Shown here piece after piece: positions 1 through 38,400 of a stretch of 64,000 nucleotides of DNA. Within the stretch, counting starts at the first letter, position 1. Each line of letters begins with the position of its first letter. The translations under genes and the position numbers were made by a program. The stretch is from Henckelia pumila. Lineage: Eukaryota > Streptophyta > Magnoliopsida > Lamiales > Gesneriaceae. The stretch is taken from the NCBI RefSeq assembly GCF_033568475.1, contig NC_133121.1, positions 50,753,905-50,817,904 of the forward strand, given 5' to 3'. Below the pieces are notes generated by a model. That model was not told where the DNA came from. It did no database searches and was given only the letters and a program-made list of their open reading frames with translations.

Positions 1-369
1 TCTGAGAAGAAGCCTTTGGCTTCTTGGCTTGGGCCATGGCTCGGGCTGAGCCATGGTGGGTTAGGACCGCCCAGACGTGGGCTACGTCTGGGTGGCGGCG
101 CTCCGGCCAGGGGCGGCCGAAGCTGGCCGGCAGCAGGCCAAGAAGGCCTGCTGCTCGCGGCCGAGAGAGGAAGAGGGGGGGGAATCGAGTTTGGGGTTTG
201 GAGGTTGCTGGGTCGGGTCTGGGTGTTCCGGGTCGGGTCTGTAGGGTATTGGGTCGGGTCAAGTGAGTCCGGGTCCAGGTTAGGTGGGCCGGGCTCGAGT
301 ATTTTTTAATTTTAAAGTGTTTAATGTTTTAATTAGTTTTTGGACCAATTAATTTGAAATAAAACTATT

Positions 370-612
370 TGGGCCTCCAAATAATTTTATTTGGGCTTTC
401 AAAATTATTTTTAAGTTAGCCCGATGATTTTTATGGGCTTGTGGGCCCATAGGAATTTTTGGGCCAATCAGTGATTTTATTGGGCCAATCCAGGAATTTT
501 TATGAATTAATTAGTTATTGGGCCTAAATATTTTTATTTAATCCCAATAACATTTAAGTATTTTATTTTAGTAAAAATTATAATTTTTAAAATTATTTAT
601 TAATTATGGGCT
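370..612 (+). promoter_or_regulatory. Cluster of TGGGCC/TGGGCT (site II-like) motifs in the LTR
   Basis: Eight TGGGCY hexamers lie at about 370, 392, 434, 442, 460, 481, 519 and 607, all in the same orientation. TGGGCY (site II) boxes are TCP-factor binding sites in promoters of plant growth-related genes. The cluster is conserved in the 3' LTR. A regulatory role is inference. Confidence 0.4.
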
Positions 613-887
613 TTAAGTTAGTTAATGGACTTTAAGTCAGTTAAGGGGTTTAGTAGAGAGACCAGCAGTCTGGACCAACCCATGAAAAATAAATAAGTCC
701 GGAATATATATTTAATTATTTTATGCATAAAGTTTATATTTTAAGTATAAGTATATTTATTATAAAAATAAATTAAATATATATTACGGACATATTTTCA
801 GTGCATGCATTCATGAAATTTCTTATGTATATAATTATGTAAATGATGAGCAATAAAATATTTTGGTGGAAATTGAAGTATGTGTGA

Positions 888-992
888 CATAGGGGTGGTT
901 TTCCACCATATGATTCGGTAGTTTTACTACCATAGGGGTGGTTATCCACCATATGATTCGGTAGTTTACTACCATAGGAGGTGATTTATCAC
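888..992 (+). repeat. Tandem 42-43 bp repeat with hairpin-forming units in the LTR
   Basis: Two full units (888-930 and 931-972) and a decayed partial third (973-992) each begin CATAGGGGTGG. Each carries two small inverted repeats (GGTGG..CCACC and GGTAGT..ACTACC). The same array is at 8345-8449 in the 3' LTR. Confidence 0.85.
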
Positions 993-1589
993 GGCCATCG
1001 TACGTTGGTTCAGGAGACTGATCAGTCGACACATGAGCGTCACACTTACGGATAGGACCATCTTCAGGTTTCAAAAGCATTGCTCAATTATGTTATATAT
1101 GATGATGAAGTAATATGTTTATGATTATGGTTATGATTCAGTTTATGATTCAACAATTTTATTATGTGATGAAAATATTTCCATGCATGCTCATGTACAT
1201 GTATATGTATTAGTAATTATGTGATGCATTATTTTTAACCTTGTTATAAAGGATTAGACATGTTGTGCCCCTAGGCTCACTACGCTTATATGGTGCAGGT
1301 GAACATGATGACGTTTATGTAGCTCCTACCGGTGGTGAGGACTTATGAGTTCACGGAGCAGTGGACCCCGTGACCGTCGCAGCTATTTAGTTTATTATGT
1401 TGAATTTTGAAACATGTTTTATTTTAAATTGATGCATGAAACATTTTAAGGATTTATTTATTTAATATTTTTCAGGTTATTTAAGAAAAAGTATGTTATT
1501 TTTATATACATATATGTATGGGCATGTATGTATAGTAGTATTATTTTTAAAAAAAAAATTTCGCATTTATTAGTAGTAGGTGTTTCATT

Positions 1590-1601
1590 TGGTATCAGAG
1601 C
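1590..1601 (+). other. Primer-binding site, initiator methionine tRNA
   Basis: TGGTATCAGAGC, the standard plant initiator-Met tRNA complement, begins three bases after the LTR terminal CA. Minus-strand DNA synthesis would start here. Confidence 0.95.
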
Positions 1602-1790
1602 GCGGTCCTTGGAGGGTGTCCTACTGCCACGTGAAGCTCAGAAATCCTACTATCGGTCTGTAAGTTTTAATTGTTTTCTTATGATTTATAAGGAGCATAT
1701 GTAATGATTTAAGATTTTCATGTTAGAAAAGTTTTAGAACCCTTAAGTTATGCATTGCGATTTACGTAAAGAAATATGTGGTGGTGCAGA

Positions 1791-4700
1791 ATGCCTCCGA
1801 GACAGGTTAACAGACGCGGGGGACCTCCACCTCCACCTCCGCAGAATCCGCTTGCAGCATTGGAGCAGGCCAATGCGAATATTATGGCTGGGATTACTGC
1901 TTTGTTGGAGCAGCAGGCGGCACGTCCTAGGCTCACACATGATGAGGATGTTGCCGAGCGGTTCCAGAAGAAGAGACCTAAGGAGTTTGTCGGCACCACT
2001 GATCCACTCATTGCTGAGGGGTGGATTCAATCACTGGAGTCCATATTTGACTACATGGGGATCACTGATGCTGACAGGGTGAAGTGTGCAGTGTATATGA
2101 TGAGAGGTGATGTAGCCTCTTGGTGGGAAGGTGCGGTTCGAGGTGTGAATCTACCTACATTGACTTGGATAGAGTTCAGACGCATGTTTTATGCCAAGTA
2201 TTTCACTGAGGATGTGCACAGTCGCATGATCCGGGAGTTTATGAGTCTCCGCCAGGGAGACAAGTCTATGGTGGATTACATCACCCAATTCGAGAGAGGG
2301 TGTCGTTTCGTGCCTCTTATTGCTGACAGTGCGCCGGATAAGTTGAGGCAATTTGTGGATGGTTTGCGGGATGACATCAAGCATGACGTTCGCATGTTGG
2401 ATGTCACTACTTATGAGGCGGCAGTTAGCAGAGCATTACATTCTGAGGAAGGGAGGCGAGAGATGCAGCGAGAGCAGCAGAGTAAGAGGCAGTTTCAGCC
2501 AGGGTATCAGACGGCGACTTCGCAGCCTCCTGCGAAGAAGCCGTATACTGGGCCGTCTAAGGGTCCGAATCAGCAGGGACAGCAGCAGAGGCCCCAGGGG
2601 CGTCAGCCACAGCAGCAGCAGAGGGGCGGGGCCCCTAATACTGGAGGAGTTTCGATCTGCCCGCAGTGTCAGAAGCCGCACATCGGGAAGTGTCTAGTGG
2701 GGTCCAATGTATGCTATGTTTGCAAGGAGCCAGGGCATGTTTCATATAACTGCCCGAAGAGGAAGAACACCACTGGGCGGGTGTTCGTCATGCAGGCTGA
2801 GGAAGCAGACCCAGATACCTCCTTAATCACCGGTATTTCCTAAACTTCTTCTTTTAAGAAATTTTTGGGAATTTACTTCATGATTTTAAATTGCATGAAT
2901 TATCTGTTTGTTTGGTTAGAGTACGATGTTCATTTTATTCGTGTTTAATTAAGAGAAATATTTTGTAACTTGTATTGGGAGAAAAGTAAGTTTAGTATGC
3001 GATTGTTGGGATTTTCTGCGTGCAGGGAGAATTTTAGTGGGAGGAAATTCCACGTTTGCGTTGCTAGATTCAGGAGCCACGCATTCGTTCATCTCCCTAG
3101 AGTTTATCAGGTGGGTAGGCATCAAGCCTGAGGTTGCTGTTATAGGTTACGATGTCACTATGCCATCTGGTCAGATTCTTACTACCACTAGCGTCTGCAG
3201 AGATTTAGAGATGGAGTTACAGGGACATACTATCAGAGCAGATTTTGTGGTTTTACCGTTGACTGGATTCGATCTGATTTTGGGTATGGATTGATTATCA
3301 GTCAACGGAGCAGTGATTGATTTTTGGCAGAGGACAGTGGCAGTGAAACCAGTGGTAGGCGACCAGTTTGTGTTCTATGCATCTTCAAGCAGTGAGATCT
3401 CGCCTGTTATCTCTTATACACGTGCGAGGAAGTTATTGAGACGTGGTTGCCAGGGGTTTCTCGCCAGTGTAGTCACTTTATCAGAACCACCTAGCAGATC
3501 ATTGTCAGATATAAAGGTGGTTTGTGACTTTTCAGATGTCTTTCCGGAGGATGTTTCGGGAGTCCCACCAGCTAGAGAGGTGGAGTTCAGTATTGATCTG
3601 ATACCAGGTACTGTGCCTATCTCTAAGGCACCGTACCGACTTGCTCCTACTGAGATGAAAGAGTTGAAGGAGCAGATTCAAGAGTTGTTGGAGAAGGGCT
3701 TTATTCGTCCTAGCTTTTCTCCTTGGGGAGCTCCAGTGTTGTTTGTGAAGAAAAAGGATGGTAGCATGAGACTTTGTATCGATTACCGAGAGCTCAACAG
3801 GGTCACTGTGAAGAACAAGTATCCACTGCCGAGGATTGAGGATTTGTTCGATCAGTTGCAGGGAGCTTCGGTTTTCTCCAAGATCGATCTGCGATCTGGC
3901 TATCATCAGTTGAGGGTCAGAGATGCAGATGTGACCAAGGCTGCTTTTCGGACACGCTATGGGCATTACGAGTTCTTAGTAATGCCGTTTGGATTGACCA
4001 ATGCTCCAGCGGTCTTCATGGATCTCATGAACCGCGTATTTCAGCCGTACTTAGATCAGTTTATCATAGTCTTTATTGATGATATCTTGATCTACTCGAG
4101 GAGCATTGAGGTGCATAGATAGCACTTGCAGACAGCATTGAAGACTTTGAGGGAGCATCGACTGTATGCAAAATTCAGTAAGTGCGAGTTTTGGCTAGAG
4201 CAGGTGGCATTTCTTGGCCATATAGTTTCGAAAGATGGGATAGCGGTGGATCAGACGAAAGTGCAGGCAGTGCAGGATTGGGGAATTCCGAAGAATGCTT
4301 CAGAGATTCGCAGTTTCTTGGGTTTAGCAGGCTACTACCGGAAGTTCATCAAGAGTTTTTCTTCTATTGCAGTACCCTTGACTTCCTTGACCAAGAAAAA
4401 TGCGAAGTTTATATGGAGTTCAGACTGTCAGAGGAGCTTCGATCGGCTTAAGGAAGCACTCACATCTGCGCCAGTGTTGGCGATGCCTGTTCCACATGAG
4501 TTAGTGGTTTACACGGACGCGTCTAAGCTTGGGTTGGGTGCCGTATTGATGCAGAGTGACCGAGTCATTGCCTATGCGTCGAGACAGTTGAAGATTCATG
4601 AGCAGAACTATCCGACGCATGACTTGGAGCTAGCAGCAGTGGTTTTTGCTTTGAAAATCTGGAGGCACTATCTGTATGGTGAGAAGTGCAAGATTTTCAC

Positions 4701-6396
4701 AAACCACAAGAGTCTCAAGTACTTCTTCACACAGAAGGAGTTGAACATGAGACAGCGCCGATGGTTGGAATTAGTTAAGGATTATGACTGTGACATTAGC
4801 TACCATCCGGGTAAGGCTAATGTAGTGGCTGATGCGTTGAGTCGGAAGACTTCAGTGGTATCATGTGTGACAGTTCAGTTGCCACTTCGGGAGGAGATTC
4901 AGAGATTCGAGCTGGAGTTGTACTCGAGCGGTCAGGAACCAAGTTTGGCAGTGTTAGTGGTACAACCGAATCTTCGGAATCGTATCAGAGTTGGACAGCC
5001 TGCAGATGAGGAGTTGCAGCGATTGAGGCAGAGAGATGAAGCCAAGGGCGGGCTTCTCTATACAGTTGTTGATAGTATCGTTCAGTACCGTGGTCGTATG
5101 TGGGTACCGAACGTTGATCAGTTGAGGATTGAGATCTTGACAGAGGCTCATATATCTCCGTATTCCATTCACCCCGGAAGTACGAAGATGTATAGAGATT
5201 TGCAGTCATTGTATTTGTGGCCCGGCATGAAGAGAGATATTGGCCGATTTTTATCAGAGTGCTTGACTTGTCAGCAGGTCAAGGCAGAGCACCAGCGTCC
5301 TACAGGGTTACTTAAGCCTCTACCCATTCCGGAGTGGAAGTGGGAGAACATCACGATGGACTTTGTAGTTGGCCTTCCGAGGAGTACTAGAGGATGTACA
5401 GCTATTTGGATGATCGTGGATAGACTCACCAAGTCAGCTCATTTCTTGCCGGTGAGGACTACTTACTCATTGACGCAGTATGCAGAGCTTTACATCAAGG
5501 AGATTGTTAGACTGCATGGCATACCAGTGTCGATAGTATCGGACAGAGATCCGAGATTTACCTCTGCATTCTGGAAGAGTTTGCACATAGCTTTGGGGAC
5601 TCGGCTATTATTCAGTACAGTGTACCATCCCCAGACAGATGGTCAGTCGGAGAGGGTGATCCAGATTCTTGAGGATCTACTGAGAGCTTGTGTCATTGAT
5701 TTTCAGGGCTCTTGGGAGACTAGACTGCCATTAGTGGAGTTTACCTATAACAACAGTTTTCAGTCGTCTATAGGTATGACTCCTTATGCAGCTCTCTACG
5801 GGAGGAGATGTAGATCGCCAGTGCATTGGGATGAGTTTGGCGAGAGGATTTTACTTGGTCCTGAGATTGTACAGCAGACTGCCGATATTGTGACACAGAT
5901 ACGGGATCGTATGAGGACAGCTCAGAGTCGTCAGAAGAGTTATGCTGATACTCAACGACGAGATCTTGGGTTTGTAGTTGGTGATCATGTGTTTTTGAAA
6001 GTATCACCTATGAAAGGGGTGATGAGATTTGGTCGTAGAGGCAAGTTGAATCCGAGATATATTGGGTCATTTGAGATCTTGGAGAGAGTTGGGACTTTGG
6101 CATACCGTTTAGCACTACCGCCAGGGCTTGCAGCAGTGCACAACGTTTTCCATGTATCCATGCTTCGGAGATACATCTCTAATCCGACGCATGTGTTGGA
6201 TTACGAGCCCTTGCAGTTAGCACCAGATCTAGCATTTGAGGAGAGACCTGTTCGGATCTTAGCCAGAGAGGAGCGGAGATTGAGGACGCGGGTCATACCG
6301 ATGGTCAAAGTCCAGTGGCAGAATCATTCAGAGGAGGAAGCCACTTGGAAGACCGAGGCAGACATTAGGACTCGCTACCCGGAGTTATTCGAGTAA
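1791..6396 (+). pseudogene. gag-pol polyprotein, split by a probable intron and two nonsense codons
   Basis: Start ATG 1791 (MPPRQ), chosen because the gag N-terminus follows directly. Gag has a proline run, the retrotransposon gag core and zinc-knuckle cysteines (CYVCKEPGHVSYNC near 2710-2752). Protease has LLDSGATHSF near 3061. RT has FIDDILIYS near 4074, RNase H has VYTDAS near 4507, and integrase has an HHCC region plus catalytic core to about 5800. The C-terminus (about 6300-6393) looks like a chromodomain. Removing 2833-3025 joins gag to pol in frame: 1042+3371 nt = 1471 codons including the stop. Premature stops are TGA 3292-3294 (family has Trp) and TAG 4120-4122 (likely from CAG). 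Without splicing, gag ends at TAA 2841-2843. Confidence 0.9.
2833..3025 (+). other. Candidate spliceosomal intron between gag and protease
   Basis: This 193-bp AT-rich segment interrupts an otherwise GC-richer coding region. It starts GTATTT and ends TTTTCTGCGTGCAG. Excision joins G(2832) with GG(3026-3027) to give continuous ITGRILVGG, the sequence expected between Gag and protease in this family. Unspliced RNA stops eight to ten bases into the segment, so splicing could set the Gag to Gag-Pol ratio. Splicing itself has not been observed. Confidence 0.65.
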
Positions 6397-6428: not shown

Positions 6429-6441
6429 ATAGGGGGAGAAT
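6429..6441 (+). other. Polypurine tract
   Basis: A purine run AGGGGGAGAA directly precedes the TG that opens the 3' LTR. It is the plus-strand priming site. Confidence 0.85.
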
Positions 6442-9045
6442 TGTAACACCCGAAAATTTTAATACGTAAATTTGCATGCATAATTAAGGAAAATGATTAT
6501 TTAAAATTTATATTTGGGTTAAATGACATTTATGTGTTATTATGTGAATTATATGCATGATTTAATTTATTTTAGCATTTAACCCGCTATTTTAGAATTT
6601 TTAGATTTTTAAGGAATTATTGGTTTTGATCGCGTAGACGGGACCGTGGACGGACGAGATACCAAAATTCTTAGCCAAAAATATTTTATGAGTTTTATGA
6701 GCCTTAGAATAATATTTTAAGATATTTTGTCAAGAAAATTTTAGTATTTAGTTATATATTTATTTAATAATTGATTTTTGGCCAAAATAAGTCATTTTAT
6801 GAACTTTTATTAATTTTTAAAAATCCTCTATATTATAATTTCGAGATTTTTGATTTGTTATCAGATTGTTAATATTTTAGGAGCTTAAAATTTTTATCTT
6901 TAAGGTATAATATCTATATATTGATTTAATGGGATTTTAAACCTATTATCTACTCAAATTTAAACCTAAACTAAATCCCTATGACCGATTAAAAAAAAAC
7001 CATCAGCCGCCTCCAACCCCTTTCTTCAACCTTGTTCACGCTTTATTCAGCAAAAAACACCCATAGTCGATCAAACCAAGCTTCATCTTTGAAGATTTTG
7101 GTCCGTTCGTCGTCCCGGAGACCCGTAAACGCATCAACTCTCGTCAAATAAATTCAAGGCATGTCTAAATCCTTCTCTTGGCCACCATATAAGCTATTAA
7201 TCATGCATGATGGTTTTTATTTCAGAATTTATCAGGAACTTTTCGTTTTATGCAAGAATGTATGATTTGATGCATGTTTGTTGATGGTTTCAGTCATGAT
7301 TCACGTTTTCTTGTTGCATGGTTCAGTCCAGAGGCTAGGGCTCAAGTCAGAGGTGGGCTAGGGTCCTAGGAAGCGAGCCATGATCGGATTACAGGGGCTG
7401 GAGTCGGCTAGGTTCAGGTCTAGGGTCGAGTTGGTCAAAGAGCTGCAGTTTAGGGTTTCTGAAAAGAAGCCTTCGGCTTCTTGGCTTGGGCCATGGCTCG
7501 GGCTGAGCCATGGTGGGTTAGGACCGCCCAGACGTGGGCTACGTGTGGGCGGTGGCGCTCCAGCCAGGGGCAGCCGGAGCTGGCCAGCAGCAGGCCAAGA
7601 AGGCCTGCTGCTCGCGGCCGAGAGAGGAAGAGGGGGGGGAATCGGGTTTGGGGTTTGGAGGTTGCTGGGTCGGGTCTGGATGGTCCGGGTCGGGTCTGTA
7701 GGGTAGTGGGTTGGGTCAAGTGAGTCCGAGTCTGGTTTAGGTGGGCCGGGCTCGAGTATTTTTTAATTTTAAAGTGTTTAATGTTTTAATTGGTTTTTGG
7801 ACCAATTAATTTGAAATAAAATTATTTGGGCCTCCAAATAATTTTATTTGGGCTTTTAAAATTATTTTTAAGTTAGCCCGATGATTTTTATGGGCTTGTG
7901 GGCCCATAAGAATTTTTGGGCCAGTCAGTGATTTTATTGGGCCAGTCCAGGAATTTTTATGAATTAATTAGTTATTGGGCCTAAATATTTTTATTTAAGC
8001 CCAATAACATTTAAGTATTTTATTTTAGTAAAAATTATAATTTTTAAAATTATTTATTAATTATGGGCTTTAAGTTAGTTAATGGACTTTAAGTCAGTTA
8101 AGGGGTTTAGTAGAGAGACCAGCAGTCTGGACCAACCCATGAAAAATAAATAAGTCCGGAATATATATTTAATTATTTTATGCATAAAGTTTATATTTTA
8201 AGTACAAGTATATTTATTATGAAAATAAATTAAATATATATTACGGACATATTTTCAGTGCATGCATTCATGAAATTTCTTATGTATATAATTATGTAAA
8301 TGATGAGCAATAAAATATTTTGGTGGAAATTGAAGTATGTGTGACATAGGGGTGGTTTTTCACCATATGATTCGGTAGTTTTACTACCATAGGGGTGGTT
8401 ATCCACCATATGATTCGGTAGTTTACTACCATAGGAGGTGATTTATCACCGCCATCGTACGTTGGTTCAGGAGATTGATCAGTCGATACATGAGCGTCAC
8501 ACATACGGATAGGACCATCTTCAGGTTTCATAAACATTGCTCAATTATGTTATATATGATGATGAAGTAATATGTTTATGATTATGGTTATGATTCAGTT
8601 TATGATTCAGCAGTTTTATTATGTGATGAAAATATTTTCATGCATGCTCATGTACATGTATATGTATTAGTAATTATGTGATGCATTATTTTTAACCTTG
8701 TTATAAAGGATTAGACATGTTGAGCCCCTAGGCTCACTACGCTTATATGGTGCAGGTGAGCATGATGACGTTTATGTAGCTCCTACCGGTGGTGAGGACT
8801 TATGAGCTCACGGAGCAGTGGACCCCGTGACCGTCGCAGCTATTTAGTTTATTATGTTGAATTTTGAAACATGTTTTATTTTAAATTGATGCATGAAACA
8901 TTTTTAAGGATTTATTTATTTAATATTTTTCAGGTTATTTAAGAAAAAGTATGTTATTTTTATATACATATATGTATGGGCATGTATGTATAGTAGTATT
9001 ATTTTAAAAAAAAAATTTCCGCATTTATTAGTAGTAGGTGTTTCA
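6442..9045 (+). repeat. 3' LTR, full length (2604 bp)
   Basis: It runs from TGTAACACCC after the polypurine tract to GTGTTTCA, matching the 5' LTR end. It contains the same hairpins (7464-7482, 7491-7513), TGGGCY cluster and 42-43 bp tandem repeat as the 5' copy. Reading frames near 7380-7723 on both strands are composition-driven and have no recognisable domain. Confidence 0.93.
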
Positions 9046-9630
9046 TTATGTGTTTGCATGGTTTATTTGGTTATATGACATGATTTTATCTTCATATATT
9101 ATGATATGTTTTTATGCTGCATGCATGATCATCTTGAGCTTGTATCCTTGTGATATCCTGTAGTATGGTGTTTATCCTATCTTGTTAATGGATGGTTGGA
9201 CACTAGGACTTGTGTCGGGTCACCATCAGTTGGATATGTAGGTCACCTCCTGATGAGATGGCACAACGTGCTACCTACCCAGGGCCCTAGTTTGTTTTCT
9301 TCACCCTCGTGTCTTGGTATCCAGATCACTTGCATTCATGCTCATATAATATGTGTATACTCATACTCTCGTGTTGAGCGTTTTATGCTCACGTCCTCGT
9401 ACTGTTGTTTTTTGACACCTCATTCGATGAGGCAGTTGCAAGTAGTTTTCCTGAGGATTTGGAGATTAGGTGGTAACCAAGACAGGATTGCAGGGTTGAC
9501 CACTAGATTATACCATGCTGGTATTAAGTTATTTAGTTTCCGCAGTTTATCTCTGATTATATTTGATTATTGTTTAAATTGCATGCCTAAGTTTTCTGAT
9601 TATTAGGTGATCACGGTGCGGGTCACTACA
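9046..9630 (+). repeat. Fragment of an older Gypsy LTR (host of the element above)
   Basis: The sequence resumes directly after the 3' LTR and resembles the U5 part of the LTRs at 51545-52230 and, in reverse, 16850-17647 (shared phrase around GTATACTC..CTCGTGTTGAGCG, then ACGTCCTCGT). It ends with GGGTCACTACA, a usual LTR end of this group. The 136-residue open frame inside has no domain. Confidence 0.65.
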
Positions 9631-24699: not shown

Positions 24700-25242
24700 C
24701 CCAGAATCATGCAATTCATCCAACATATCATCTAGTTTAGGAATAGGATGCCTATATTTGATGGTAATATTGTTAATGGCTCTACAATCAACACACATTC
24801 TCCATGAACCGTCTTTCTTAGGTACTAACAAAACAAGTACAACACAAGGAGACATAAACTCACGCACAAATCCCTTATCGAGAAGTTCACTTACCTGCCT
24901 TTGTAGCTCTTTTGTTTCCTCCAGATTACTCCTATAAGCTGGACGATTCGGTAATGCACTTCCGGGCACAAGATCAACTTGATGCTCAATTCCCCTCAAA
25001 GGTGGTAATCCTTGAGGTAGATCCTCCGGAAATAGTTCTTCAAATTCCTGCAAGAGAGAAACAACACTACTCGAAAGATTTTCGGCTATATCACTTGTGT
25101 TAAGGAGAATCTCCTTATAGAAAATCAACACAAGTGGAGTATGCACATGTAAAATCTCTCGCAACTCACTCTTTTGGGCTATATATATATTTTTTATCGG
25201 CCTCTTTCCTCTAATTTTTTTCTTCATCTTTTTTTCTTTCAT
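24700..25242 (-). pseudogene. Reverse transcriptase N-terminal part, CRM/Reina-like chromovirus, truncated
   Basis: The minus strand reads [54 protein letters not shown] and [15 protein letters not shown]. It then stops being RT and continues in Athila-like integrase sequence. The catalytic F/YxDD block, RNase H and integrase core of this lineage are absent. It is in the same frame as the upstream gag but separated by stops between 25242 and 25344. Confidence 0.85.
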
Positions 25243-25341
25243 TCTTTTTTTCTAAGGCCATCTCACTTTTTTGTTCACTCTTTTTTTCGGCCTCTTCTCT
25301 CTTTTTCTTTTTCAAATGATCCTCCAATACTTGTTTTGGAG

Positions 25342-26871
25342 TCACAACAACACAACAGACTCTTTTTTCATAGTAAAAGAATAACGATTCTTAAAATCAT
25401 CATGTGTCACCTTCCTATCAAATTGACATGGTCTACCCAACAAGATATGACAGGCTTGCATAGGAACAATATCACACAACACTTCATCCTCATATTTACC
25501 AATTGAAAAAGGCACCACAACTCGCCTAGTCACTCTCATTTCAGAACTATCATTAAACCACTGCAATTTATATGATTGAGGATGCTTTAAAGTAGGCAAA
25601 CTCAATTTTTCAACAAGCTCACTACTTGCGACGTTGGTACAGCTACCCCCATCAATGATGACACTACACACTTTGTTTTTCACAAAGCATCTAGTATGAA
25701 ACAAATTTTCCCTTTGATCTTCTTCCTCCTCCTTTTGTTGCACATTCAACACTCTCCTAGTCACCAACAACTCACCAACAACTGCATTACATCCCTCGTC
25801 ATCGGGATCCTCCAACGCAGGCATATCATCATAATTCTCCTCCTCACTCTCCGATTCAATCTCACCACCATCATTCACAATAATTATTTTTTTATTAGGA
25901 CACTGACTAGCAATATGACCAAGACCTTGACATCTAAAGCATTTAATGTCCCTAGAATGATTATTGGGAGTTTCAGATTTACCTTGCACTCCTTGCTTTG
26001 GCATTTCTTGCTTGGTGTCAACTTTTGGTTTGGACACCGTCTTGACATCCTCTCGTTTTCCAACGTTTGGACGCCAAGGTATAGTAGTTCCTCCACCTGA
26101 GGGCACTCGACCAATGCCTCTCCTTTTAAGTTGTAGCTCCACTTTCATAGCTAATTGTACCATCTCCTCAAGATCCACACAATGTCGTAGCTCCACTTGG
26201 TCTTGAATATTTCTATTAAAACCACACAGAAATCGAGCCATGGTTGCCTCACTATCCTCCTCAATGTTAGCCCGAATCATAGTAATCTCCAACTCCTTGG
26301 AGTAGTCCTCTACACTCCTCGAGCCTTGCTTCAAATTCTGCAATCGCTTAAACATATCACGATAATAGTAATTGGGATCAAACCTTTTCTTCATTATTTG
26401 CTTCATCTCTTCCCATGTTTCAACAGGCCTCTCACGATTTATCCTCCTAGTTGTAACCAGCTGATCCCACCAAATTAGAGCATAATCCATAAACTCAACA
26501 ACCGCTAACTTTATTTTTTTTGAATCGCTGTAGTTGTGGCAATCAAATACCGATTTCACTCTCATCTCCCACTCCAAATAAGCCTTCGGATCAGATTTCC
26601 CATGAAACGATGGAATTTTCATCTTAATCCCACTAATATTCCCATTTTCTCTACCCCCTTCAGTATATCTCCCTCGCATTGCTTCTCTTCTACTTCTTCC
26701 ATCCTCCTGACCTCGCTTATTCCTACCCGAATTCTCACCAAAACTCTCATCATCCTCACTAACTTCAAGTTTACTTATTCTTTCATGCATCATTTCCAAC
26801 TCAGCTCTCATCGCTTCCCTTATCATCGTACTCAAATCTTCCTTTGAAAAATTTTGACTGTTAGAACTCAT
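25342..26871 (-). CDS. gag-protease of a CRM/Reina-like Gypsy element
   Basis: A 509-codon frame starting at MSSNSQNF (26871-26869). The longer frame from 26913 adds 14 residues that lie in the leader. It has a coiled N-terminus, a retrotransposon gag core (KMKIPSFHGKSDPKAYLEWE to LKQGSRSVEDYSKEL), one CCHC zinc knuckle (CFRCQGLGHIASQC), an acidic stretch, and an aspartic protease domain with IIDGGSCTNVAS, the DGGS form typical of this lineage. The reading frame is intact, but the downstream pol is truncated, so the element is defective. Confidence 0.85.
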   Translation of the reverse strand: MSSNSQNFSKEDLSTMIREAMRAELEMMHERISKLEVSEDDESFGENSGRNKRGQEDGRSRREAMRGRYTEGGRENGNISGIKMKIPSFHGKSDPKAYLEWEMRVKSVFDCHNYSDSKKIKLAVVEFMDYALIWWDQLVTTRRINRERPVETWEEMKQIMKKRFDPNYYYRDMFKRLQNLKQGSRSVEDYSKELEITMIRANIEEDSEATMARFLCGFNRNIQDQVELRHCVDLEEMVQLAMKVELQLKRRGIGRVPSGGGTTIPWRPNVGKREDVKTVSKPKVDTKQEMPKQGVQGKSETPNNHSRDIKCFRCQGLGHIASQCPNKKIIIVNDGGEIESESEEENYDDMPALEDPDDEGCNAVVGELLVTRRVLNVQQKEEEEDQRENLFHTRCFVKNKVCSVIIDGGSCTNVASSELVEKLSLPTLKHPQSYKLQWFNDSSEMRVTRRVVVPFSIGKYEDEVLCDIVPMQACHILLGRPCQFDRKVTHDDFKNRYSFTMKKESVVLL

Positions 26872-28319: not shown

Positions 28320-29550
28320 TCAGTAAGAGTTTTGGATTGATTGTATGATTTTTTTTTCCAAAACTTGAGAAATAGAAAGAAGAAAATTGGAAGAATGCTT
28401 GATCAACTGATTGAAGACTTTGTTTTGTACTTGAGTTTCTAGACAAGATACTCAAATAATTAGGATTGTTGCAATCCAAACTACGTTAGATTAGTTTGAA
28501 AAGATTAAAGCAACATTGAGATTAAATCAAGCGATTAGAAGTTGGTTGAGAATGCTAGATTGAGTATGAAACAACAGATTATATATCGATTCAGTTGTTC
28601 AAAAATGTTGTATGAATTACTTGGAAATCAGTATTGGCAAAAGAAAATGGAAGACGATATGACATAATTGAGTTTCCAATACCTACGTTTCCAGTAATAG
28701 AAGCAGAAAAGAAGAGACTGAGTGATCTATGAATCAGTTTAGCAAATCTAAAGTCAAAACAAGAATAATTTTTTGACAGATTTTAATTCGAAATTACTCA
28801 AATCGTCATGAGTTTGCGATTTGTATTGAAATAAATTCGTCAGATTCAAGAATACGCTGTATTAGCTGTAATATCGATATGAGTTGCTAGCTGTTACGAA
28901 GTTGGTGATATGATGAAATTACAGGAATTGTTGAAATTTATTGTCGAGATAGAGATTTTAGATATAGTTGGTAGATTGTGGCATCGATTTTCAGAAATTC
29001 TGAGTGTTTGGTTGTATGTGATTTTATTATGCCACCTTTTGATCGATGGATTGTCTGAGGTGACTATCCAGATTTGAGGAAATGCTCAGAACTATAATAT
29101 CTGATTCGATACTAACTGATAGATTTTGCTACTTGCTTATTGCAATTTTTGTAACAGTTATTCGATTGATATAGAGATCGTGTTTTTGACTAAGAAATGA
29201 GAAGAAAAGCAGAAGTTTCTTTGTGATAAGACGGTATTGCAAAAGTATCGACAATCAGATCAGATGTGGATTGATAAAAGACAGAAAATATGAAGATTGA
29301 TTCGTACCGAATTTGAACAGAGCAGATTAGACAGAGTCAGAGTTTGAAGCTTGAACAGAATGTTCAGCGAGAAATGTTCTTTTTGGAGCAATATTTGATT
29401 CAGAAAGAAGAAGATAAGATATCAGAAAAGATATCTAAAGCTCTTAGAATTGAAGTAAGAAATACTTCAGTCAGCTTTACAGTCTACGAGATTCAGTAGT
29501 ACGATTGAATGTGATTTCGAGGACGAAATCATTCCTTAGAAGGGATGAAT
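28320..29550 (+). pseudogene. Decayed 3' internal region of a Gypsy element (plus copy)
   Basis: No intact frame. It matches the reverse complement of about 35433-36990 over most of its length (for example TGTGATTTCGAGGACGAAATC before the LTR in both). The end CTTAGAAGGGATGAAT is the polypurine tract. The 5' part of the element is missing at the junction with 28318. Confidence 0.65.
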
Positions 29551-30636
29551 TGTAAGGCCCTGAAAATATGAATATTAATTACGAAATTATAGATTTAAAT
29601 TTAGTATTTGGAAAATATTCAATTTAGAGAATATGGAAATTAGAGATGTCATTTCTGAGCCGAAAATATTTAATTTGAGAATTTACGGATTTTGAGAATT
29701 AAATTCCGGGATTCTTAAATTAAAAAGGAAAAATATTTGAATTGAATATTTGTAGGATTTAATAATTTAAATGGTGATTTTGGAATTAAAAATAATGAAT
29801 TAGAAGAAAAAGAATTGGATAAGGACCGAATTGCAATTAGCCAAGACTTTAAGGGCCAAAGTGCAATTTTAGCCATTTTAAATGGATTACACGTGTGATG
29901 TGTATAAATTGCATGAAATATAGATCTCCATCAGAATTGCAGCCAAAAAGTCGAGAGAGGAGAGAACAGATTCCGAAGCCAAGTTTCTTCATTTCAGTTG
30001 GGAGTTGACGATTATCGACGTCGAAGTCAATGAGTTCAAGTTGATTTGAATATTTGGATCAAAGTGGCATCAACTTGGAGCTTGGACTATCAAGAGGGAT
30101 ATGAGCAGATTTTGATTTAAATGCAGATTTTTGGGACAACTTGTATGTGATCAAGAAGTGCCAGAGTTCAGAGATTTGAGTTCAGAATAAAGGTATGATT
30201 CGACATTAACCTCGACAGATAGAATAACTCGAGAACGTGGTGGTTTTCGAGTTTATTAAATCACATACATGCATGATTAGTTGTTTTACTTAATCTTATA
30301 TGATCTAAATGAATTCCTTGACTTAGTTGATTTGGTTGATATATGAGTTGTTTGATTTAAACATGATTACTTGTTGAGATTGATGATTGATAGTTTATTT
30401 GAGATTGATAAGTTTAGATTATTTTGAATTGTTGAGTTATGGTAGATTGGATATAGAATTGAGAGTAAACCTCTTGAGCCATAATTCTTTCGAAATCTTG
30501 AAAACAGAATCGAAAAGAAAATATTGGGCATGGTAAACTTATATATGAGAGGCTAGAGATCTGACTTGATTTCTTTTTGCCACGGTTCTCAGTATAGTGT
30601 TCACAGTCCAGGGAATACAAGATTGACCACCTCGAG

Positions 30637-32752
30637 TGTAACGCCCCGTTTTTATCTTAATTGAATTTATTTGAGTTAATCAGAGATTACAGAGTTCTCG
30701 AGCCGGTTTGATTTTGATCAGGGTCCTTTTTGCAAAAATTGGATTTTTCAGGGACTAAAACGCAATTATCGGTTTTTATAGATATTTATAAGGCTTTTGG
30801 GCTCATTCTATTCTCCATCACCTCCATTGCATCGCCTCCCTCCATTGAAGTCGATTCATTGAGCTTTCAAGCTTTCTGATTTCAGTCCGAGCTCGATCCG
30901 GCCGTTGGAAATTATTTCTGAAGGCAGATTAGCAATCACAGCAACGAGAGCTTCGTTATATCGTAAGTTCTTCTTCGATCGGATACATTCTAGTTTTTGG
31001 ATGTTGTTAGAATCGTTTGAGATTCGAGTATGTTGTTCTCTACAGAGTTCTGATCGTTTATTATCTGTCGGTTTTGAATTAGAGCGACGTTCGGATTTAT
31101 TATGATTTTTGGAAGCCATTTTCGAAAATGTGGTTTTGAGATTTGTTGGGTTTGTCTTGTTGTTGTTGTTTGGGCATTGATATGAGTTGATATCGGTATT
31201 GAACTGCTGTCTGCATTTCCGGTTTGTTCAGTTTATAGCCGTTATGCCGTCGGTTTGAGTTTTGGGTTTTCGAATCGTGTTTGTATTGATTGGAGTCTTG
31301 GCGTGTGAGTGATCGTGGTTGTTGATCAACTCTTGAATTCTTACAGATTCGTTGGAGTTTGTCGAGCCCTGTGTTAGCAGCATTGTTCGTCGAGAGTTGG
31401 ACGAAGAACGGTATAAAGAGTTTTCCTTGAACCGTTGCCTTGTTGTTGTTAGATTGTGTAGTTGTTTATACAATCTCTTTTGTAGCTTATCCAGAGTTGG
31501 AGCTACTGCATTGAAAGGTAAAAGCAGTCATCGTAGCGGGATAGCATACTCGGGACTGTTGGTTCTCGAGTTTCCCTTTTTAAATCACATATTGCATTGA
31601 TACTTGTTCTAGCACGTGGAACTTGTAATTGTTGATTGATTGAGTTTTTGTTATGTGGCTTATGTTTATGTTTCTGTTATGCATTCATCTTGAGCCTACT
31701 TTGATTTCAGCGGGCAGAACCGCCCTTTTTGTTAGACGTTTGGGAACTATGATTGAGTGGCCTAGGTTGTAGTATTTCGCCTAGTGCTAGCATACTCATT
31801 ATGGTTGCTCAAAGTTTAGAGGAGTGGGATACGTGGCACCACCTCGATTGGGAGAGTCGGTGAGTCGTTACGTGATCTCATCCTCGGGATCCCAAAAGCA
31901 GAGCAATACTCCCGTGTTTATCAGAATCGATATCCTGGTTTTAAAGTCATGCATATCATTAACTTCGACTTGAATATGTGGTTTGATAGCATGTTGTATA
32001 TTCATTACTTGATATGTTGCTTTTACTGGGATTATCATTCTCACCGGTTATCCGGCTGTTGCTTTGTTTTGTATGTGTACTTGGCAACAGGTGGGGCAGG
32101 AACAAGTCAGAAGAGGCATGGTTAGCTTCGAGGGCAAGTAGTAGAAGTGAGACTCGGTTTAGAAGTCGAATTAGCATGTTTATCTAGTTTAAGATTGAAG
32201 CATGTTAGAACTCGAACTTGATATGTTTTGTTATTCGAATTAGTTTGTATTCGGATTGTAATCTGAAATCGAAGTATGTTGTTGTTGTATCGATTTAGGC
32301 CTTCTGTAAGCATGACTTGTTATGGCATGTTTCCCTACACCCTGTTATTGCATTTGTATTTGAAGGCATGTCGGACCAAGCGCGGAATCCTTTCTTTTTT
32401 TTTTTTTTTTTTTTAAAACGCCGCGCGCCCGCGCGAGGAACCAAGCTCGCGCGCGCGCGAGGCCTCCGTTGGGCCTCGGATTTGTTTGCCCGCGCGCGCG
32501 CGAGCTTGGTTCCTTGCGCGGGCGCGCGGCGTTTTAAAAAAAAAAAAAAAAAAAACTTTGACTTGTTTTACTCTTGGATTCTTGTTCGCTTAATTGTTGT
32601 TTAATCCGAGATTAGTGGTTTAGAATCGAGGTCTCACATTAAGAATCCAATTTTTGCAAAAAGGACCCTGATCAAAATCAAACCGGCTCGAGAACTCTAT
32701 AATCTCTGATTAACTCAAATAAATTCAATTAAGATAAAAACGGGGCGTTACA
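30637..32752 (+). mobile_element. LTR insertion carrying an inverted copy of its own 5' end, flanked by TCGAG duplication
   Basis: LTR 30637-32638 (TGTAACGCCCCG to GGTCTCACA) is followed by TTAAG and then 32644-32752, the reverse complement of 30637-30745 (109 bp, one mismatch seen). The whole block is flanked by TCGAG (30632-30636 and 32753-32757), the 5-bp duplication expected of LTR integration. The unit therefore has long terminal inverted repeats despite being an LTR. The internal frames have no domains. Confidence 0.8.
32395..32555. repeat. Very long GC-rich hairpin (about 65-bp stem)
   Basis: A run of 20 T (32395-32414) plus 45 bp (32415-32459) is the reverse complement of 32491-32535 plus 20 A (32536-32555). 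I see a single mismatch in the 45-bp arm. The loop is about 31 bases. Arms start AAAACGCCGCGCGCCCGCG. Confidence 0.95.
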
Positions 32753-33817
32753 TCGAGCGGGAGCGTAGGTGGGAGGCTTGATTTTTTGCCTTATTATATT
32801 CCCGGGATCCCAACGAGATGATTTTTGAAAATATCGATTCTGTGAGACTTGAATCCTTTAACCCTCGACTTGTCTTTGAGTTTTTATGTTATTGAATGAA
32901 TTTTCTTTGAAAAATATTTGACAGGTAAGGGTATAAGGAAATGATGATTGTGATAGTAGATTACTTGTTTGAGTTATATCTACTTGATTTATATATATAT
33001 CTTTCATATTGAGATTTATTCTCACCGGAGTTATCTGGCTGTTGTTTTGCTTGTATGTGTGCATTGCATCAGGTTGAAGGGTAAGCAAGTCAGACTTGAC
33101 ATGGAAGCGAGAAATTGAGAGATTAGAGTGGAGACTCGGGTGATAGAAGACGTCTATGTTCTTTTGTAATGTCAAGCATGTTAGAGTTGAAATCCAATGT
33201 TGATATGTTGATTTCATTGGTTTAGTTTATCCTTTCATGTTTGATGTTTGTATTAAAGGCTTGAGGTTAGACTTTAATCTAGATGTTTATGTTGTTGCTA
33301 CATTTGAAGTTTAGTTGAGTCACTTTTGTAGATTCTACATGTAAACTTGATGTGGTTTATATGAAGAAATGGAACTTATTTGTTGTAGCATCATGCTCTT
33401 TTGGTTATGAAGATACTTGTACAATTTATGCCATTAGCTTTGATATATCTTAGAGAAGTTGGCATGAACATGTTTGTATTATCTTGGATAGGATTATGTT
33501 AGCATTGGCATAACTTGTGAGATGTTTTAGATGGCTTGAGAAGGCTTGGACAGCAGCACCAACTGCTGCAATTTATTTTCTGTTGTGCAGACCCGCGCAG
33601 GGGCGAGCCAGCCTGCGGGGCTGCTGGCCCGTTGGCCTGCGCTCGCGCGAGAGGTGAGCCTCGCGCGCGCACAGGGCAAACTTTTTTTAAAAAAAAAATT
33701 AGGCCTTTGGATGCTTGCTTGATTGCTTGATATTAATTCATGTTTTTGGATTAAATGTTCTTATTTGATCTTGGATTAACCGTTATGATTTGAGAGATTA
33801 GTGCCCGAGTCCTCACA

Positions 33818-35432
33818 TGACTAAATCTGCTTCTTTCAACTCTTGCTCGTTCAATCGTCTAGTTGATCTATTTCTTAATTCATCTTCTTGTCGACTTGAA
33901 TACTTCGACTCGAGTTCGATGATTTTCAACTTAAGTTTGAAAGAAAGTATTGTACAATTCACAATCAGCTTCCAATCTTATTCAATGCTTAACAATCTCA
34001 AAACTTGATTGAATGACCGGAATTCAAACCGGCGGCGTAACGGTTCCGAAATGGAAATTCCAAAAGCATAAACATTATCTTATCAATCATCTAAACTCAT
34101 TATCATCACCAATTAGCAGCTAAATTTCAAAATCATCAGCCCCAAAAATTCAGAATTGCAAAAATTTTCAAAAATTCATAAACATGCTCAAACTAGGGAT
34201 GGCAATGGACCCGACCCCGCATTGAACCCGGCCCGGCGGGACGGGTTAAGACCCGGCCAAGCGGGTCCAGATGCGGGTTCGAGTTGGGTCCCGGGTTTGG
34301 CCGGACCCGCCCTGCCAAAAAATATATATATTAAATATAAATATAAATTATATATGTATATATAATTATATTATTTATATTACATAATCAATACTTTATC
34401 TTTAATTTAATTTTATAATATTTTTGGATTTAAATAATTTTAATATATTATGATATTTTTAATATAAAAATATATTATTATGATTTTTCCTTAGTTATTA
34501 ATTATTATTTAAATTAAAATGATATATTTTAACTTGTAAAAATATTTTTTTACATTAAATATTATTAATATAAATTTTAAAAATAAATTTAATAATGATT
34601 TGTTAATTTTTTAACTTATTTAAAATTTTATTTAATATAATTTAAATTATATTTAATTTGGCGGGTCCAACGGATCTAACCCGGATTGGACCCGCTGGGT
34701 CCACGGGGCGGGGCGGGTCTCAGGTTTGCCCAAACCCGCCCCGCTGCCATCCCTAGCTCAAACGACGATCTTTTTTCAATCCGTCTTATATATGCTATCG
34801 TCGTATATAATAGAACATGTTTATACAATCAAATCTTAATTCTAACAACATCCTAAAATTCAAACATGATAAAAAAAAAATTCTTAAAACTTACGTCAAA
34901 ATATAGCACTCGAAGCCGTGATTGCAAATATACGATCAATTTAAAATTCTACCGGGCGGATTGATTTATACCAAATTTGGAAGTGAAAGAATCGGTTGAA
35001 ATCTGATTTTTTCCTCATGGCTTTCGGTTCCTACAATGAAAATCTGATGAATTCCATGCCTATACACGTTTCCATGTATTTATGTAACATGTGTCATCCA
35101 CTTGACTTGACCAAATTGCACTTTGGTCCCTAAACTTCTCAATATTTGCAATTCGGTCCATGCGCCATTTTCACCTTCCAATTAAATCCTTTTTAATTTC
35201 AAACTCAACATTTAAATCTTAAATCCCATAAATAATCAATTCAAATATTCTAATATTTTAATTTAATAATTCCGGATATTAAAATCTTAAAATTCGTAAA
35301 TCCTCAAATTAAATGTTTTCGACTCAAAAATTAAATCTCTACTTCCGTAAATTCTCAAATTAATATTTTCTCGTATTCAAAATTTAAATCTCAAATCTCG
35401 TAATTAATTATTAAATATTTTCGGGCCTTACA
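33818..35432 (-). repeat. 5' part of a Gypsy LTR, minus orientation, split by a hAT MITE
   Basis: The minus strand starts TGTAAGGCCCGAAAATAT at 35432 and includes a leader-like region. It is cut at 33818, where the plus LTR ends. It belongs to the same family as the LTR at 29551. Confidence 0.6.
34194..34755. mobile_element. Non-autonomous hAT element (MITE)
   Basis: Terminal inverted repeats TAGGGATGGCA are followed on both ends by GC-rich GGGTC/CCCG words. It is flanked by a perfect 8-bp target duplication GCTCAAAC (34186-34193, 34756-34763). The centre is AT-rich and encodes no transposase. TIR and duplication length are those of plant hAT elements. Confidence 0.92.
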
Positions 35433-38400
35433 ATTCCTCCTCTCTAAGAAATGATTTCGTCCTCGAAATCGCATTCGATCTTATTACTGAATTTCATAAA
35501 CTGTATAGTTGATTAAAGTAATACTTACTTCATTTCTGTGAGGTTTAGATATCTGTTCTGATATCTTCTCTTATTCTTCTATCTGATTGCTTCTTCAATC
35601 ATGTCTATTTCATTGCTCTGTAGTCATTGATTCATCTTACATCTAAGCTGCTCTTCCTCTTGATCAAAAACTGCATCGATTATTTTGCTTAGCTCAAAAT
35701 CTTATCGGCTTCTGTTTCACTTGATCGAAATAAGGATCAATTATTGAATCATTTTCTGGAATCACTTTCTGAATTGGATAATGCTCTGAAAAGAAATTTT
35801 TTGCTGATCATTATGTTCACACATCAAAATTTGTATCTGTTATTTTTCTGCTAACTCTGTTGATTCTGCTTTGTTCTTATTCTGTTCGGATCAATCTTCA
35901 TATTCTCTATCTTTTCTCGACTCATATCTGGTCTAATAGCTGATATTTCTAAAATACTGTCTCAACATAGAGACAATTATGCTTTTCTAATCATCTAGTA
36001 ATCAAAAACACTATCTTTATATCTATTAGATAGCTATCATAGGAATTACAATAATCAAGTGGCAAATGTCAATCAGCTAGTACCAAATATAGTACTATAG
36101 TTCTGAATATATCCTCGGAAATCTGGATAATCACATTTGATAGTCCGCTAATCGGAGGATGGTATAATGAAATCTCATACAACCATACACTCAGAACATC
36201 TGATAATCAATGCCACAATCTATCAAATAAATCTAAAGTCTCTATCTCGACAATAGATTTCAATGATTCCTGTAATCTCATAACATTACTCATTTCTTAA
36301 CAGCTATCTCATTATATCTTTATCGCATCTAATACAACATATTCTTGAATCTGTTGAAATCTACCACAATCTAAATCGCAAAATCATGACGATTTGAGTA
36401 GTTTCAAACTAAAATTATTCAAAAAGTTAATCTTATTTTGACTCTTAAGTAACTAAACTATTACATCGATCATTGGATCTCTTCTTTTCTGCTTCTTTTA
36501 CTGGAAATTTAGTATCGGCAATTTCAATTTTGTCGTATCTGCTTTTATTTTCTTTCACCAATACTACTTTACAAGTAATTCATATATGTAATTCATACAT
36601 TTTCAAACAACTTGATGGATATGAAATCTGTTGTAATATGCCTCTTTCAGAATCTGATGTCCTAGTACTAGAACATCTAGCATACTCAAATGATTATTCA
36701 TCGCAAAATTCATCTGTTCTGATCTGTTGTCTTGTCTCATATCCTGATCTAGCATTCTCAATCGAATTTCTACTGCTTGATCTAATATCGATGTTGCATT
36801 AATCTTTCCAAACTAATCTATCTTAGCTTGGATTGCAACAAGTCTGATTATTTGAGTATCTGTCTAGAAACTCAAGCACAAAAGTACAAATATGCAATCA
36901 CTCGATCATGTAGTCATCTAATTTCTTCTTTCTATTTCCTAATGAATGGCAAATCATGCAATCAACACATAAATCTTGCTGATACTCTATATCAAAATTT
37001 CTATCAGTTACGAGCCAAAAAATTCAAACTATACTGAATATATACATTAAACGATCAAAAATTCTTGAATCTTGACTCAAAGGAACACGCTCAAATCAAG
37101 GTCATCCAAAATCACATATTCTGAATGACAAAATCTGCTAAGTGAAAACAACTCACTTGCATCATAAAACTCAAAAAGAATGAATCAAATCAGACTCCAA
37201 CAAAGAAATAAGAGTCAATCAAGATCGACCGAGGTCGAATAACAAAAACCTCAGAATCGATATCAAAAGATTCAAGAATCATGATTCTATGATGTAATAG
37301 CTTCAGCAAAATTGAAGAGAAGGCTCAACTGTAACTGATTTTTTTTATTCTCTCTTGATATGAGTTTATCTATTAATTCTCTTTTGACAATAGTCGAATA
37401 TCATATTTTCAACTTAAATTATTGTCGTAGAATTAATAACCACTTCGGTACTAGGATAATTCTTCTTTAATCAATATTCTAGCTATTTCCGGAGTTCTTT
37501 AGTTCATGTAGTGCTCTTATATATGAGTTGTCATAAGACCTTCGTACTAGACACCACTCTATATAGAACTCCTTTCATTTCGTAGAAAGGTTGGAATATT
37601 TCATCTGAATATTTCTGAACATTCTAACCACTGACATATCTGTCAATTTTAGGTTAGTTCTCTACTGATCTAGTACAACGACTAAAATTCTTCCGACATT
37701 CTTCTACTTTAATCTTGATATACTCAGTACCGACATAAAAGGAATTTTAGTTCTGAAACTCATATCATAAATCTCTAGTCATTTCTATTGCTGATCTAAC
37801 TTAATCATTGCCCGGATTCAATCAGCTGTTAACGGATACTCAGTTATTGCATTAATATCTTTAATGCATCCTAACTTAATACACTCAAGTCTTATATTAT
37901 CGAGTTCAATCTTATTTCCTCAAATCTGTATTTCATCTTTTCTGACTACTCTTGCAAATGTTTCCATCTACTCAAAGGCAAAAACTCAAAAAATACAATT
38001 AATAAAGGCTCACCAGACAAAATTGTAGCATAACAAATCACTGATCTATGAATGTATACAATGCAATCAATATATAAGCAGGTTAATAAGAATTAACTCA
38101 ATTACCTGCAATATTATTATCTGATGCATTTTGAGCCCAATCTGTACTTGCTTATTGCCTGTGAGATTATTCTCTATTCGAATTTCCTCTTGATCTGCTT
38201 CAGCTAAGGATGATATTCTCATCTTTCTTGAAATACTGACTCTTAAACTTAATCGATCTTTGCTGCTGTTGTCACTACCTCTTGCTTCATAGCTGTACTG
38301 CTATGAAATCTATAGTGATGGTGATGATCATATTTTTCTCAACTACGGAGGCGTGAATAAAATCCTATTCTGCCTCGTACAAATGATTCGTGGTTTTTTT

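What the first reader, a model, noticed from the sequence alone, without database searches (positions are those of the whole stretch)
2833..3025. A spliceable intron separates gag from pol in a Tekay-like chromovirus
Seen: gag ends in a stop just inside a 193-bp AT-rich GT...AG segment, and pol resumes in another frame. Removing exactly GT(2833) to AG(3025) restores the family-typical ITGRILVGG junction and makes the whole gag-pol length a multiple of three. Known: chromoviruses usually have one continuous gag-pol ORF; introns near this place are described for Ogre-type Tat elements. Inference: unspliced RNA would give Gag only and spliced RNA Gag-Pol, so splicing would replace frameshifting as the Gag:Pol ratio control. 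This is the strongest candidate for an undescribed mechanism here.
Basis: partly seen in the sequence, partly recalled or inferred. Interest (0 to 1): 0.78.

Follow-up and report, generated by a model that had tools for sequence, protein, structure and literature searches.

The report
Retrotransposon with alternatively spliced Gag/Pol intron
A family of plant jumping elements carries a small removable RNA segment between its coat-protein and enzyme genes, and the same cut site also fits a second landing site in the element's terminal repeat, which suggests that RNA splicing sets how much coat and how much enzyme is made.

Summary
Confirmed and extended. The 193-bp GT...AG segment (2833-3025) is present in 39 of 39 other fetched copies of this Ty3/gypsy chromovirus from the same genome (inferred Henckelia pumila); GT is kept in 38, AG in 36. 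It has stops in all three frames. It is not a one-off insertion: a family with about 50% identical Gag (P0014) has a 227-228-bp intron at the same codon and phase. In that family 12 copies lack the intron at the predicted junction against 209 with it; in the P0006 family 9 of 122 scored copies read through. New part: the same donor fits, in phase, an acceptor inside the 3' LTR (AG 8754-8755) followed by a 15-codon frame and stop. Five related Gag gene models end in similar tails; for P0014 the tail lies in both LTRs, about 6.1 kb beyond gag. So one donor probably has three outcomes: retention gives short Gag, the near acceptor Gag-Pol, the LTR acceptor Gag plus a tail. No RNA reads were available. 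The window's own copy has two further stops in pol.

The parts
1..1587 (+). 5' LTR, cut by the window start; contains the same acceptor (AG 1297-1298) and tail frame as the 3' LTR
   Evidence: 1-1589 matches 7458-9047 at 97.3%; sequence
1245..1250 (+). TATA-like box (TATAAA) in the 5' LTR, twin at 8702-8707; would place the transcript start shortly upstream of the LTR acceptor
   Evidence: function inferred
1590..1601 (+). primer binding site TGGTATCAGAGC (tRNA-Met type; that assignment is recalled)
   Evidence: exact in 5 of 8 loci, the window's included
1660..1789 (+). candidate leader intron (GTAAGT donor at 1660, alternative GT at 1656; GTGCAG acceptor ending 1789, gag ATG at 1791)
   Evidence: donor and an acceptor GTGCAG/AATG present in the 5 of 8 loci with an exact PBS, the other 3 not examined; gene models P0003 and P0004 fit the matching acceptor with donors 4 nt apart (my reading)
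1791..2843 (+). gag, capsid and one zinc knuckle; stop TAA 2841-2843 lies inside the intron
   Evidence: Pfam Retrotrans_gag 2.5e-14, zf-CCHC 1.9e-5
2833..3025 (+). 193-bp phase-1 GT-AG intron between gag and protease
3026..6396 (+). pol: protease, RT, RNase H, integrase parts, sub-threshold chromodomain; two in-frame stops in this copy (3292-3294, 4120-4122)
6431..6440 (+). polypurine tract before the 3' LTR
6442..9045 (+). 3' LTR (TGTAACACCC...TTTCA), about 2.6 kb
8756..8805 (+). candidate alternative 3' exon inside the 3' LTR: after GTGCAG, phase-compatible with the gag donor, reads (G)EHDDVYVAPTGGEDL then TGA 8803-8805
   Evidence: tblastn with tails of three related gene models, best E 2.6e-4; of 20 fetched stretches 12 matched, 11 of the 12 keep GCAG/GTGAG and an open tail; 9-nt in-frame length change in a family 79% identical in pol

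Best explanation
This is a Ty3/gypsy chromovirus that expresses its genes by alternative splicing from one donor at the end of gag. Three outcomes are predicted. (1) No splicing at this donor: Gag ends in G-I-S just inside the intron; this RNA can also serve as genome. (2) Splicing to the near acceptor (193 bp): Gag-Pol polyprotein. (3) Splicing to an acceptor inside the 3' LTR removes all of pol and gives a Gag with an acidic LTR-encoded tail of 12-18 residues, in the window-type families mostly ending [IV]xPT[GS]GED[VIL]. Shown here: intron structure, its presence across the family, the same intron position in another family, intron-less copies in two related families (boundaries sequenced in one), and the phase-matched LTR exon. 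Inferred: that the RNAs are made from this family, their ratio, and that this ratio sets Gag:Pol.
For: Intron in 39 of 39 fetched copies, GT 38, AG 36; 40 of 40 scored span it. P0014 family, same codon: four intron-bearing junctions sequenced (227-228 bp), six read-through copies sequenced, all six lacking the GT..AG stretch (one has a substitution in the first exon base). Genome-wide at up to 3 mismatches: 209 with, 12 without, controls 0. The read-through copies do not form one tight group: L091 is nearest to intron-bearing L097; L092 and L094 are nearest to each other and to intron-bearing L100, which suggests at least two losses or recombination. P0006 family: 111 of 122 matches stop at residue 313 and 2 at 312, the LITG junction; 9 reach 315 with open frames of 616-1480 aa; 4 of those 9 overlap a printed intron-less junction (list cut at 100 of 135). 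LTR exon: window frame matches the tails of P0001, P0002, P0012. The P0014 tail coding sequence occurs 275 times, control 0; of 40 gag copies compared, 38 have one 0.4-0.7 kb upstream and 27 one about 6.1 kb downstream; 103 of 109 gag matches end at the junction, so the tail is not contiguous with gag there. Of 67 anchored junctions among 158 proteins, 28 end within 40 residues: by eye 14 acidic tails, 11 retained-intron-like, 3 other.
Against: No RNA read was examined; gene models may rest on prediction. In the window's own family no exact intron-less junction was found (0 exact; 2 at one mismatch, of which the one read is a sister family, 86-91% identical), so loss there is not shown. The intron-bearing junction of the P0006 family was not sequenced, so exact loss there is inferred, and loss was not told from gain by a tree. 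In the P0014 family CAGGTA stands at both intron ends, so a microhomology deletion could mimic splicing there. No retrocopy of the gag/LTR-spliced RNA was found for P0014 (0 at up to 3 mismatches), though such RNA lacks the polypurine tract and would not be expected to copy well. Eight of 20 fetched LTR stretches gave no hit for the exon region, and one of the 12 hits has lost the GT after the acceptor. No AATAAA-type signal (four motifs) was seen in 8756-9045. The donor ACCG/GTATTT departs from the plant consensus (recalled). Elements without the intron are common in this genome, so it is dispensable over evolution. 91 of 158 proteins could not be classified at the junction.
Confidence: 0.75

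Rival explanations
1. A plain facultative intron as in Ogre: retained gives Gag, removed gives Gag-Pol. The LTR frame and the tailed Gag gene models are annotation by-products with no biological role.
For: Intron evidence as above. Tails are seen only in gene models and unnamed assemblies, and automatic annotation can add terminal exons.
Against: Tails recur at the same residue in several H. pumila Gag models and in Primulina and Zingiber models. The LTR frame is phase-matched, keeps its stop, and changes length by 9 nt (L075) or 3 nt (L003) in frame. The end PT.GED[IL] is kept between the window and L075, whose LTRs are otherwise about 72% identical.
Confidence: 0.18
2. A non-functional insertion that hit one ancestral copy and was amplified; the GT..AG ends are accidental, and pol comes from other copies.
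For: A sister element lacks it with a continuous frame (L101: 113 of 124 and 127 of 147 flanking bases identical). Introns of the window and P0014 families share only 96 of 192 aligned bases.
Against: Same codon and phase in a family with about 50% identical Gag, where near-identical copies occur with and without it, cut at GT..AG.
Confidence: 0.04
3. Intron-less copies arose by microhomology deletion or are the older state, so they say nothing about splicing; pol is reached by stop readthrough or frameshifting.
For: CAGGTA repeats at both intron ends in P0014; no tree was made to tell loss from gain.
Against: The segment has stops in all three frames, so one frameshift or one readthrough cannot cross it. 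The window-type junction has no such repeat (ACCG then GGAGAATT).
Confidence: 0.03

Closest known systems
Ogre (Tat lineage, Ty3/gypsy, non-chromovirus)
   Same: A facultative intron splits the polyprotein frame, and splicing joins the two parts (PMC6317226, passages read)
   Different: [quoted passage not shown] here it lies before the protease, in an element with a weak chromodomain match, and the donor has a second possible acceptor in the 3' LTR
Tekay/Del chromoviruses, e.g. Bongo3 of Beta vulgaris
   Same: Domain order, 3'-terminal chromodomain, tRNA-Met type primer site
   Different: Beta chromoviruses incl. Bongo3 have one continuous gag-pol frame (PMC3605345, passages read)
Copia-type Gag-only splicing: Drosophila copia, BARE1, EVD/shGAG
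   Same: Splicing makes an mRNA dedicated to Gag; copia removes nearly all pol (PMC3735527, passages read; PMC12786077, passages read)
   Different: In BARE1 splicing destroys the pol frame; here the short splice creates Gag-Pol, and the long splice would end inside the LTR with a coded tail
Bianca (Ty1/copia; that placement is recalled)
   Same: Two frames separated by about 172 bp (PMC6317226, passage)
   Different: Different superfamily; splicing was not stated in the passage read
Cer1 of C. elegans (Ty3/gypsy, CERV protein)
   Same: A spliced RNA shares gag-frame exons and makes another protein (PMC10309623, passages read)
   Different: CERV is a separate 517-aa regulator from five exons, not Gag with an LTR tail

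Membership tests
Spliceosomal (GT-AG) intron | GT...AG ends, T-rich body, relatives' protein resumes across it | tested here: met
Spliceosomal (GT-AG) intron | Exact absence in copies made through RNA | tested here: inconclusive
   Seen in the P0014 family (6 sequenced, 12 by pattern; CAGGTA repeat is a caveat) and supported in the P0006 family (9 of 122); not found in the window's own family
Spliceosomal (GT-AG) intron | Spliced reads | not testable with these tools
Chromovirus, Tekay clade | GAG-PROT-RT-RH-INT order | tested here: met
Chromovirus, Tekay clade | Chromodomain at the end of integrase | tested here: inconclusive
   Pfam Chromo E 7.3e-5, 23.0 bits against a cut-off of 25.1, at the C-terminus
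Chromovirus, Tekay clade | Placement by RT/INT tree with Tekay references | not tested
Ogre | Intron between protease and RT | tested here: not met
   Intron lies before the protease
Ogre | Splicing shown in RNA | not testable with these tools
   No RNA data
Copia-type shGAG splicing | Spliced Gag-only mRNA | tested here: inconclusive
   Phase-matched LTR acceptor and gene models only

The most novel reading that the evidence does not exclude
A splice switch shared by chromovirus families of eudicots and possibly monocots: one donor at the end of gag chooses between retention, a short splice to pol and a long splice into the 3' LTR. The LTR then does double duty as promoter region and as coding exon for a conserved Gag C-terminal tail found only on the Gag made from pol-less mRNA, so capsid-forming Gag would be chemically distinct from the Gag inside Gag-Pol.
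Probability: 0.6. Interest if true: 0.82.

Novelty: new variant of a known kind. Interest (0 to 1): 0.73.

Why it matters
How single-promoter retroelements make much Gag and little Pol is an old question. The survey passage I read says most plant groups use one frame (PMC6317226), and a 2025 review says plant LTR elements generally lack introns, with Ogre and EVADE as notable exceptions (PMC12786077, passages). If this reading is right, an abundant group of plant elements uses splicing instead, and its LTR is under coding constraint. Copies with and without the intron sit side by side in one genome, so the cost or benefit of the intron can be compared directly.

Tried and rejected
Rejected: one-off insertion. 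Rejected: a single frameshift or readthrough across the segment (stops in all frames). Tried without result: relatives in viral contigs (none); a third protein search on the Zingiber tail (4 proteins of 9 candidates, all Zingiber, the query included); retrocopies of gag/LTR-spliced RNA. Selection on the splice sites inside the young family cannot be measured: difference from the window copy is 1.5% in the intron and 2.4-3.3% at flanking coding positions. Three papers looked up by id were not held. A second sunflower paper was searched for splicing and intron words and had none (PMC11728184). L075's junction lay under a nested element and was not recovered. Random sampling of 20 stretches of 10 kb gave few Tekay-type junctions.

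Full report
What was checked. Pfam places Retrotrans_gag and a zinc knuckle before it, and protease, RT, RNase H, integrase parts and a sub-threshold chromodomain after it. Of five related proteins in which gag and protease are one chain, three align up to 2834 and resume at 3025 at the same residue (P0010, P0018, P0034) and two overlap there by four residues (P0055, P0059).

Where it lies. The genome handle has 885 Mb, and two of its contigs have exactly the lengths attached to Henckelia pumila proteins, so I take it as that species (Gesneriaceae). The two LTRs are 97.3% identical over 1.59 kb; the 3' LTR runs 6442-9045.

Family-wide presence. A search with 2600-3300 scored 40 of 2397 first-look candidates; all 40 (the window included) span the segment at 97-100% identity. 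In the 39 others GT is kept in 38, AG in 36, and the in-intron stop in 38. The gag/intron boundary occurs 164 times at up to 3 mismatches, control 0. First-look candidates far exceed those scored, so counts are lower bounds.

Other families. Gene models of relatives change course at this residue. Searches gave 158 distinct proteins (one search listed 120 of 306). Of these, 67 could be anchored at the junction by script: 25 run into protease, 28 end within 40 residues, and 14 are otherwise placed, some of which also run into protease; 91 were not anchored and are not counted. Of the 28, by eye, 14 end in acidic tails beginning GE, GD or GTD, 11 end as a retained intron would, 3 otherwise. Three more tails (P0020, P0112, P0113) were read among 24 unanchored proteins. 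Host names: Henckelia pumila, Primulina tabacum, P. eburnea, P. huaijiensis, Dorcoceras hygrometricum, Zingiber officinale, plus unnamed assemblies.

P0014 (Gag about 48% identical to the window) was searched in the genome: 109 copies scored of 33,971 candidates; 103 matches end at residue 362, the junction, and 6 run past it. Ten junctions were read: four have an intron of 227 or 228 bp between CTCACAG and GTAGGATT, and six have none, the exons abutting (in L096 with one substituted base). By pattern the genome has 209 with and 12 without. The intron-less copies do not form one tight group: L091 is nearest to intron-bearing L097 (1 + 1 differences), while L092 and L094 are nearest to each other and to intron-bearing L100 (whose script ended in an error after that table). 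That is few sites, so I claim at least two losses or recombination. CAGGTA at both intron ends leaves a deletion by microhomology open.

In the P0006 family 122 copies were scored of 31,693 candidates: 111 matches end at residue 313 and 2 at 312, 9 reach 315 with open frames of 616 to 1480 aa. Four of those nine overlap places whose printed junction is ACCG/GGAGAATT, a type listed at 3 mismatches from the window probe. The intron-bearing P0006 junction itself was not sequenced. For the window's own family no exact intron-less junction exists in the scan (0 exact, 2 at one mismatch, 6 at two, of 135); the one-mismatch place that I could read is a sister family, 113 of 124 and 127 of 147 bases identical on the two sides, with a continuous frame. 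A more distant gypsy element, L089, passes from gag to protease without an intron.

The LTR exon. Tails of Gag models P0001, P0002 and P0012 match one frame in each LTR of the window, at 1298-1345 and 8755-8802, best E 2.6e-4; P0006 and P0023 carry similar tails. The three other tails tried, of P0014, P0015 and P0019, gave only scattered weak matches (best E 0.055), as expected of other families. The DNA reads GTGCAG/GT GAG CAT..., so an acceptor at 8754-8755 joins the phase-1 donor at 2832 to give G-EHDDVYVAPTGGEDL-stop. All three candidate acceptors of the element, before gag (1788-1789), before pol and in the LTR, end in GTGCAG. Of 20 fetched downstream stretches, 12 matched the exon region and 8 did not; 11 of the 12 keep GCAG/GTGAG (10 of them GTGCAG) and an open tail, one has ATGA there. 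A family 79% identical in pol (L075) keeps the acceptor and reads (G)EQVDTDVEHIAPTSGEDI-stop, three codons longer; one near copy is one codon shorter in its 5' LTR (L003). For P0014 the tail's coding sequence, preceded by AG, occurs 275 times, control 0. I compared 40 of the 109 gag copies (those on C1, C2 and the start of C3) with 68 of the 100 listed tail places: 38 have one 0.4 to 0.7 kb upstream, 27 have one 5.9 to 6.2 kb downstream, 25 both. That places the tail in both LTRs and makes the P0014 model a gag-to-LTR splice. A TATA-like box sits about 50 bp upstream of the LTR acceptor, which fits an acceptor inside the repeated R region; this is inference, and no AATAAA-type signal was seen downstream in the LTR.

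Mechanism. The simplest account is one donor with three fates: retention (short Gag, and genome), near splice (Gag-Pol), LTR splice (tailed Gag). Shown: structure, family-wide conservation, intron-less genomic copies in related families, phase-matched LTR exon. Inferred: the RNAs in this family, their ratio and the role of the tail. Tailed RNA would lack the polypurine tract, which fits the absence of retrocopies (0 at up to 3 mismatches in the P0014 family).

What is known. Passages read: Neumann 2019 names Bianca and Ogre as having two frames with a spacer and says most groups have one frame (PMC6317226); Beta chromoviruses including the Tekay-clade Bongo3 have one continuous frame (PMC3605345); a 2025 review names Ogre and EVADE as notable intron-bearing exceptions (PMC12786077); BARE1 and copia make Gag-only RNA by splicing (PMC3735527); two sunflower copia elements give spliced short GAG forms, and Tekay was absent from the expressed set (PMC7730604); Cer1 makes CERV from a spliced RNA (PMC10309623). 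My searches for a chromovirus, Tekay or gypsy gag/pol intron were made; in the listings and passages I saw none described for a chromovirus. Subscription papers are largely outside that library, so this is not proof of absence.

Verdict. The intron is real and very probably spliced; the LTR acceptor is the more surprising part and rests on phase, conservation and gene models. It is a new variant of splicing-controlled Gag and Pol expression.

Noticed in passing
1656-1789: Candidate leader intron between primer binding site and gag ATG, with tandem donors 4 nt apart and a GTGCAG acceptor touching the start codon; gene models P0003 and P0004 (isoforms X5 and X4, taken to be of one gene) fit the two donors.
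   Followed up: partly
1297-1303 and 8754-8760: The LTR acceptor sequence GTGCAG/GTGA(A/G)C is at the same time donor-like; in the 5' LTR it could act as a donor in the leader.
   Followed up: no
51562-54399: Direct repeats 51562-52200 and 53765-54399 (88%) flank a distant gypsy RT-like match near 53.0-53.5 kb: probably another, older LTR element.
   Followed up: no
28369-36938: Inverted repeat pair (28369-29869 against 35113-36938, 77-84%) enclosing about 5 kb.
   Followed up: no
24823-26625: Weak matches to gypsy gag and pol proteins on the minus strand: probably a remnant of another Ty3 element.
   Followed up: no
691-797: Imperfect self-inverted repeat in both LTRs (also 8148-8254).
   Followed up: no
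L070:1-800: Element whose gag and intron start are followed, after a little over 100 bp, by the LTR: pol deleted, intron start kept.
   Followed up: partly
P0085, P0093, P0124: Primulina Gag models (one cluster of 26) end just before the junction, in ETELTLH or similar; this ending is not explained by the three fates.
   Followed up: no
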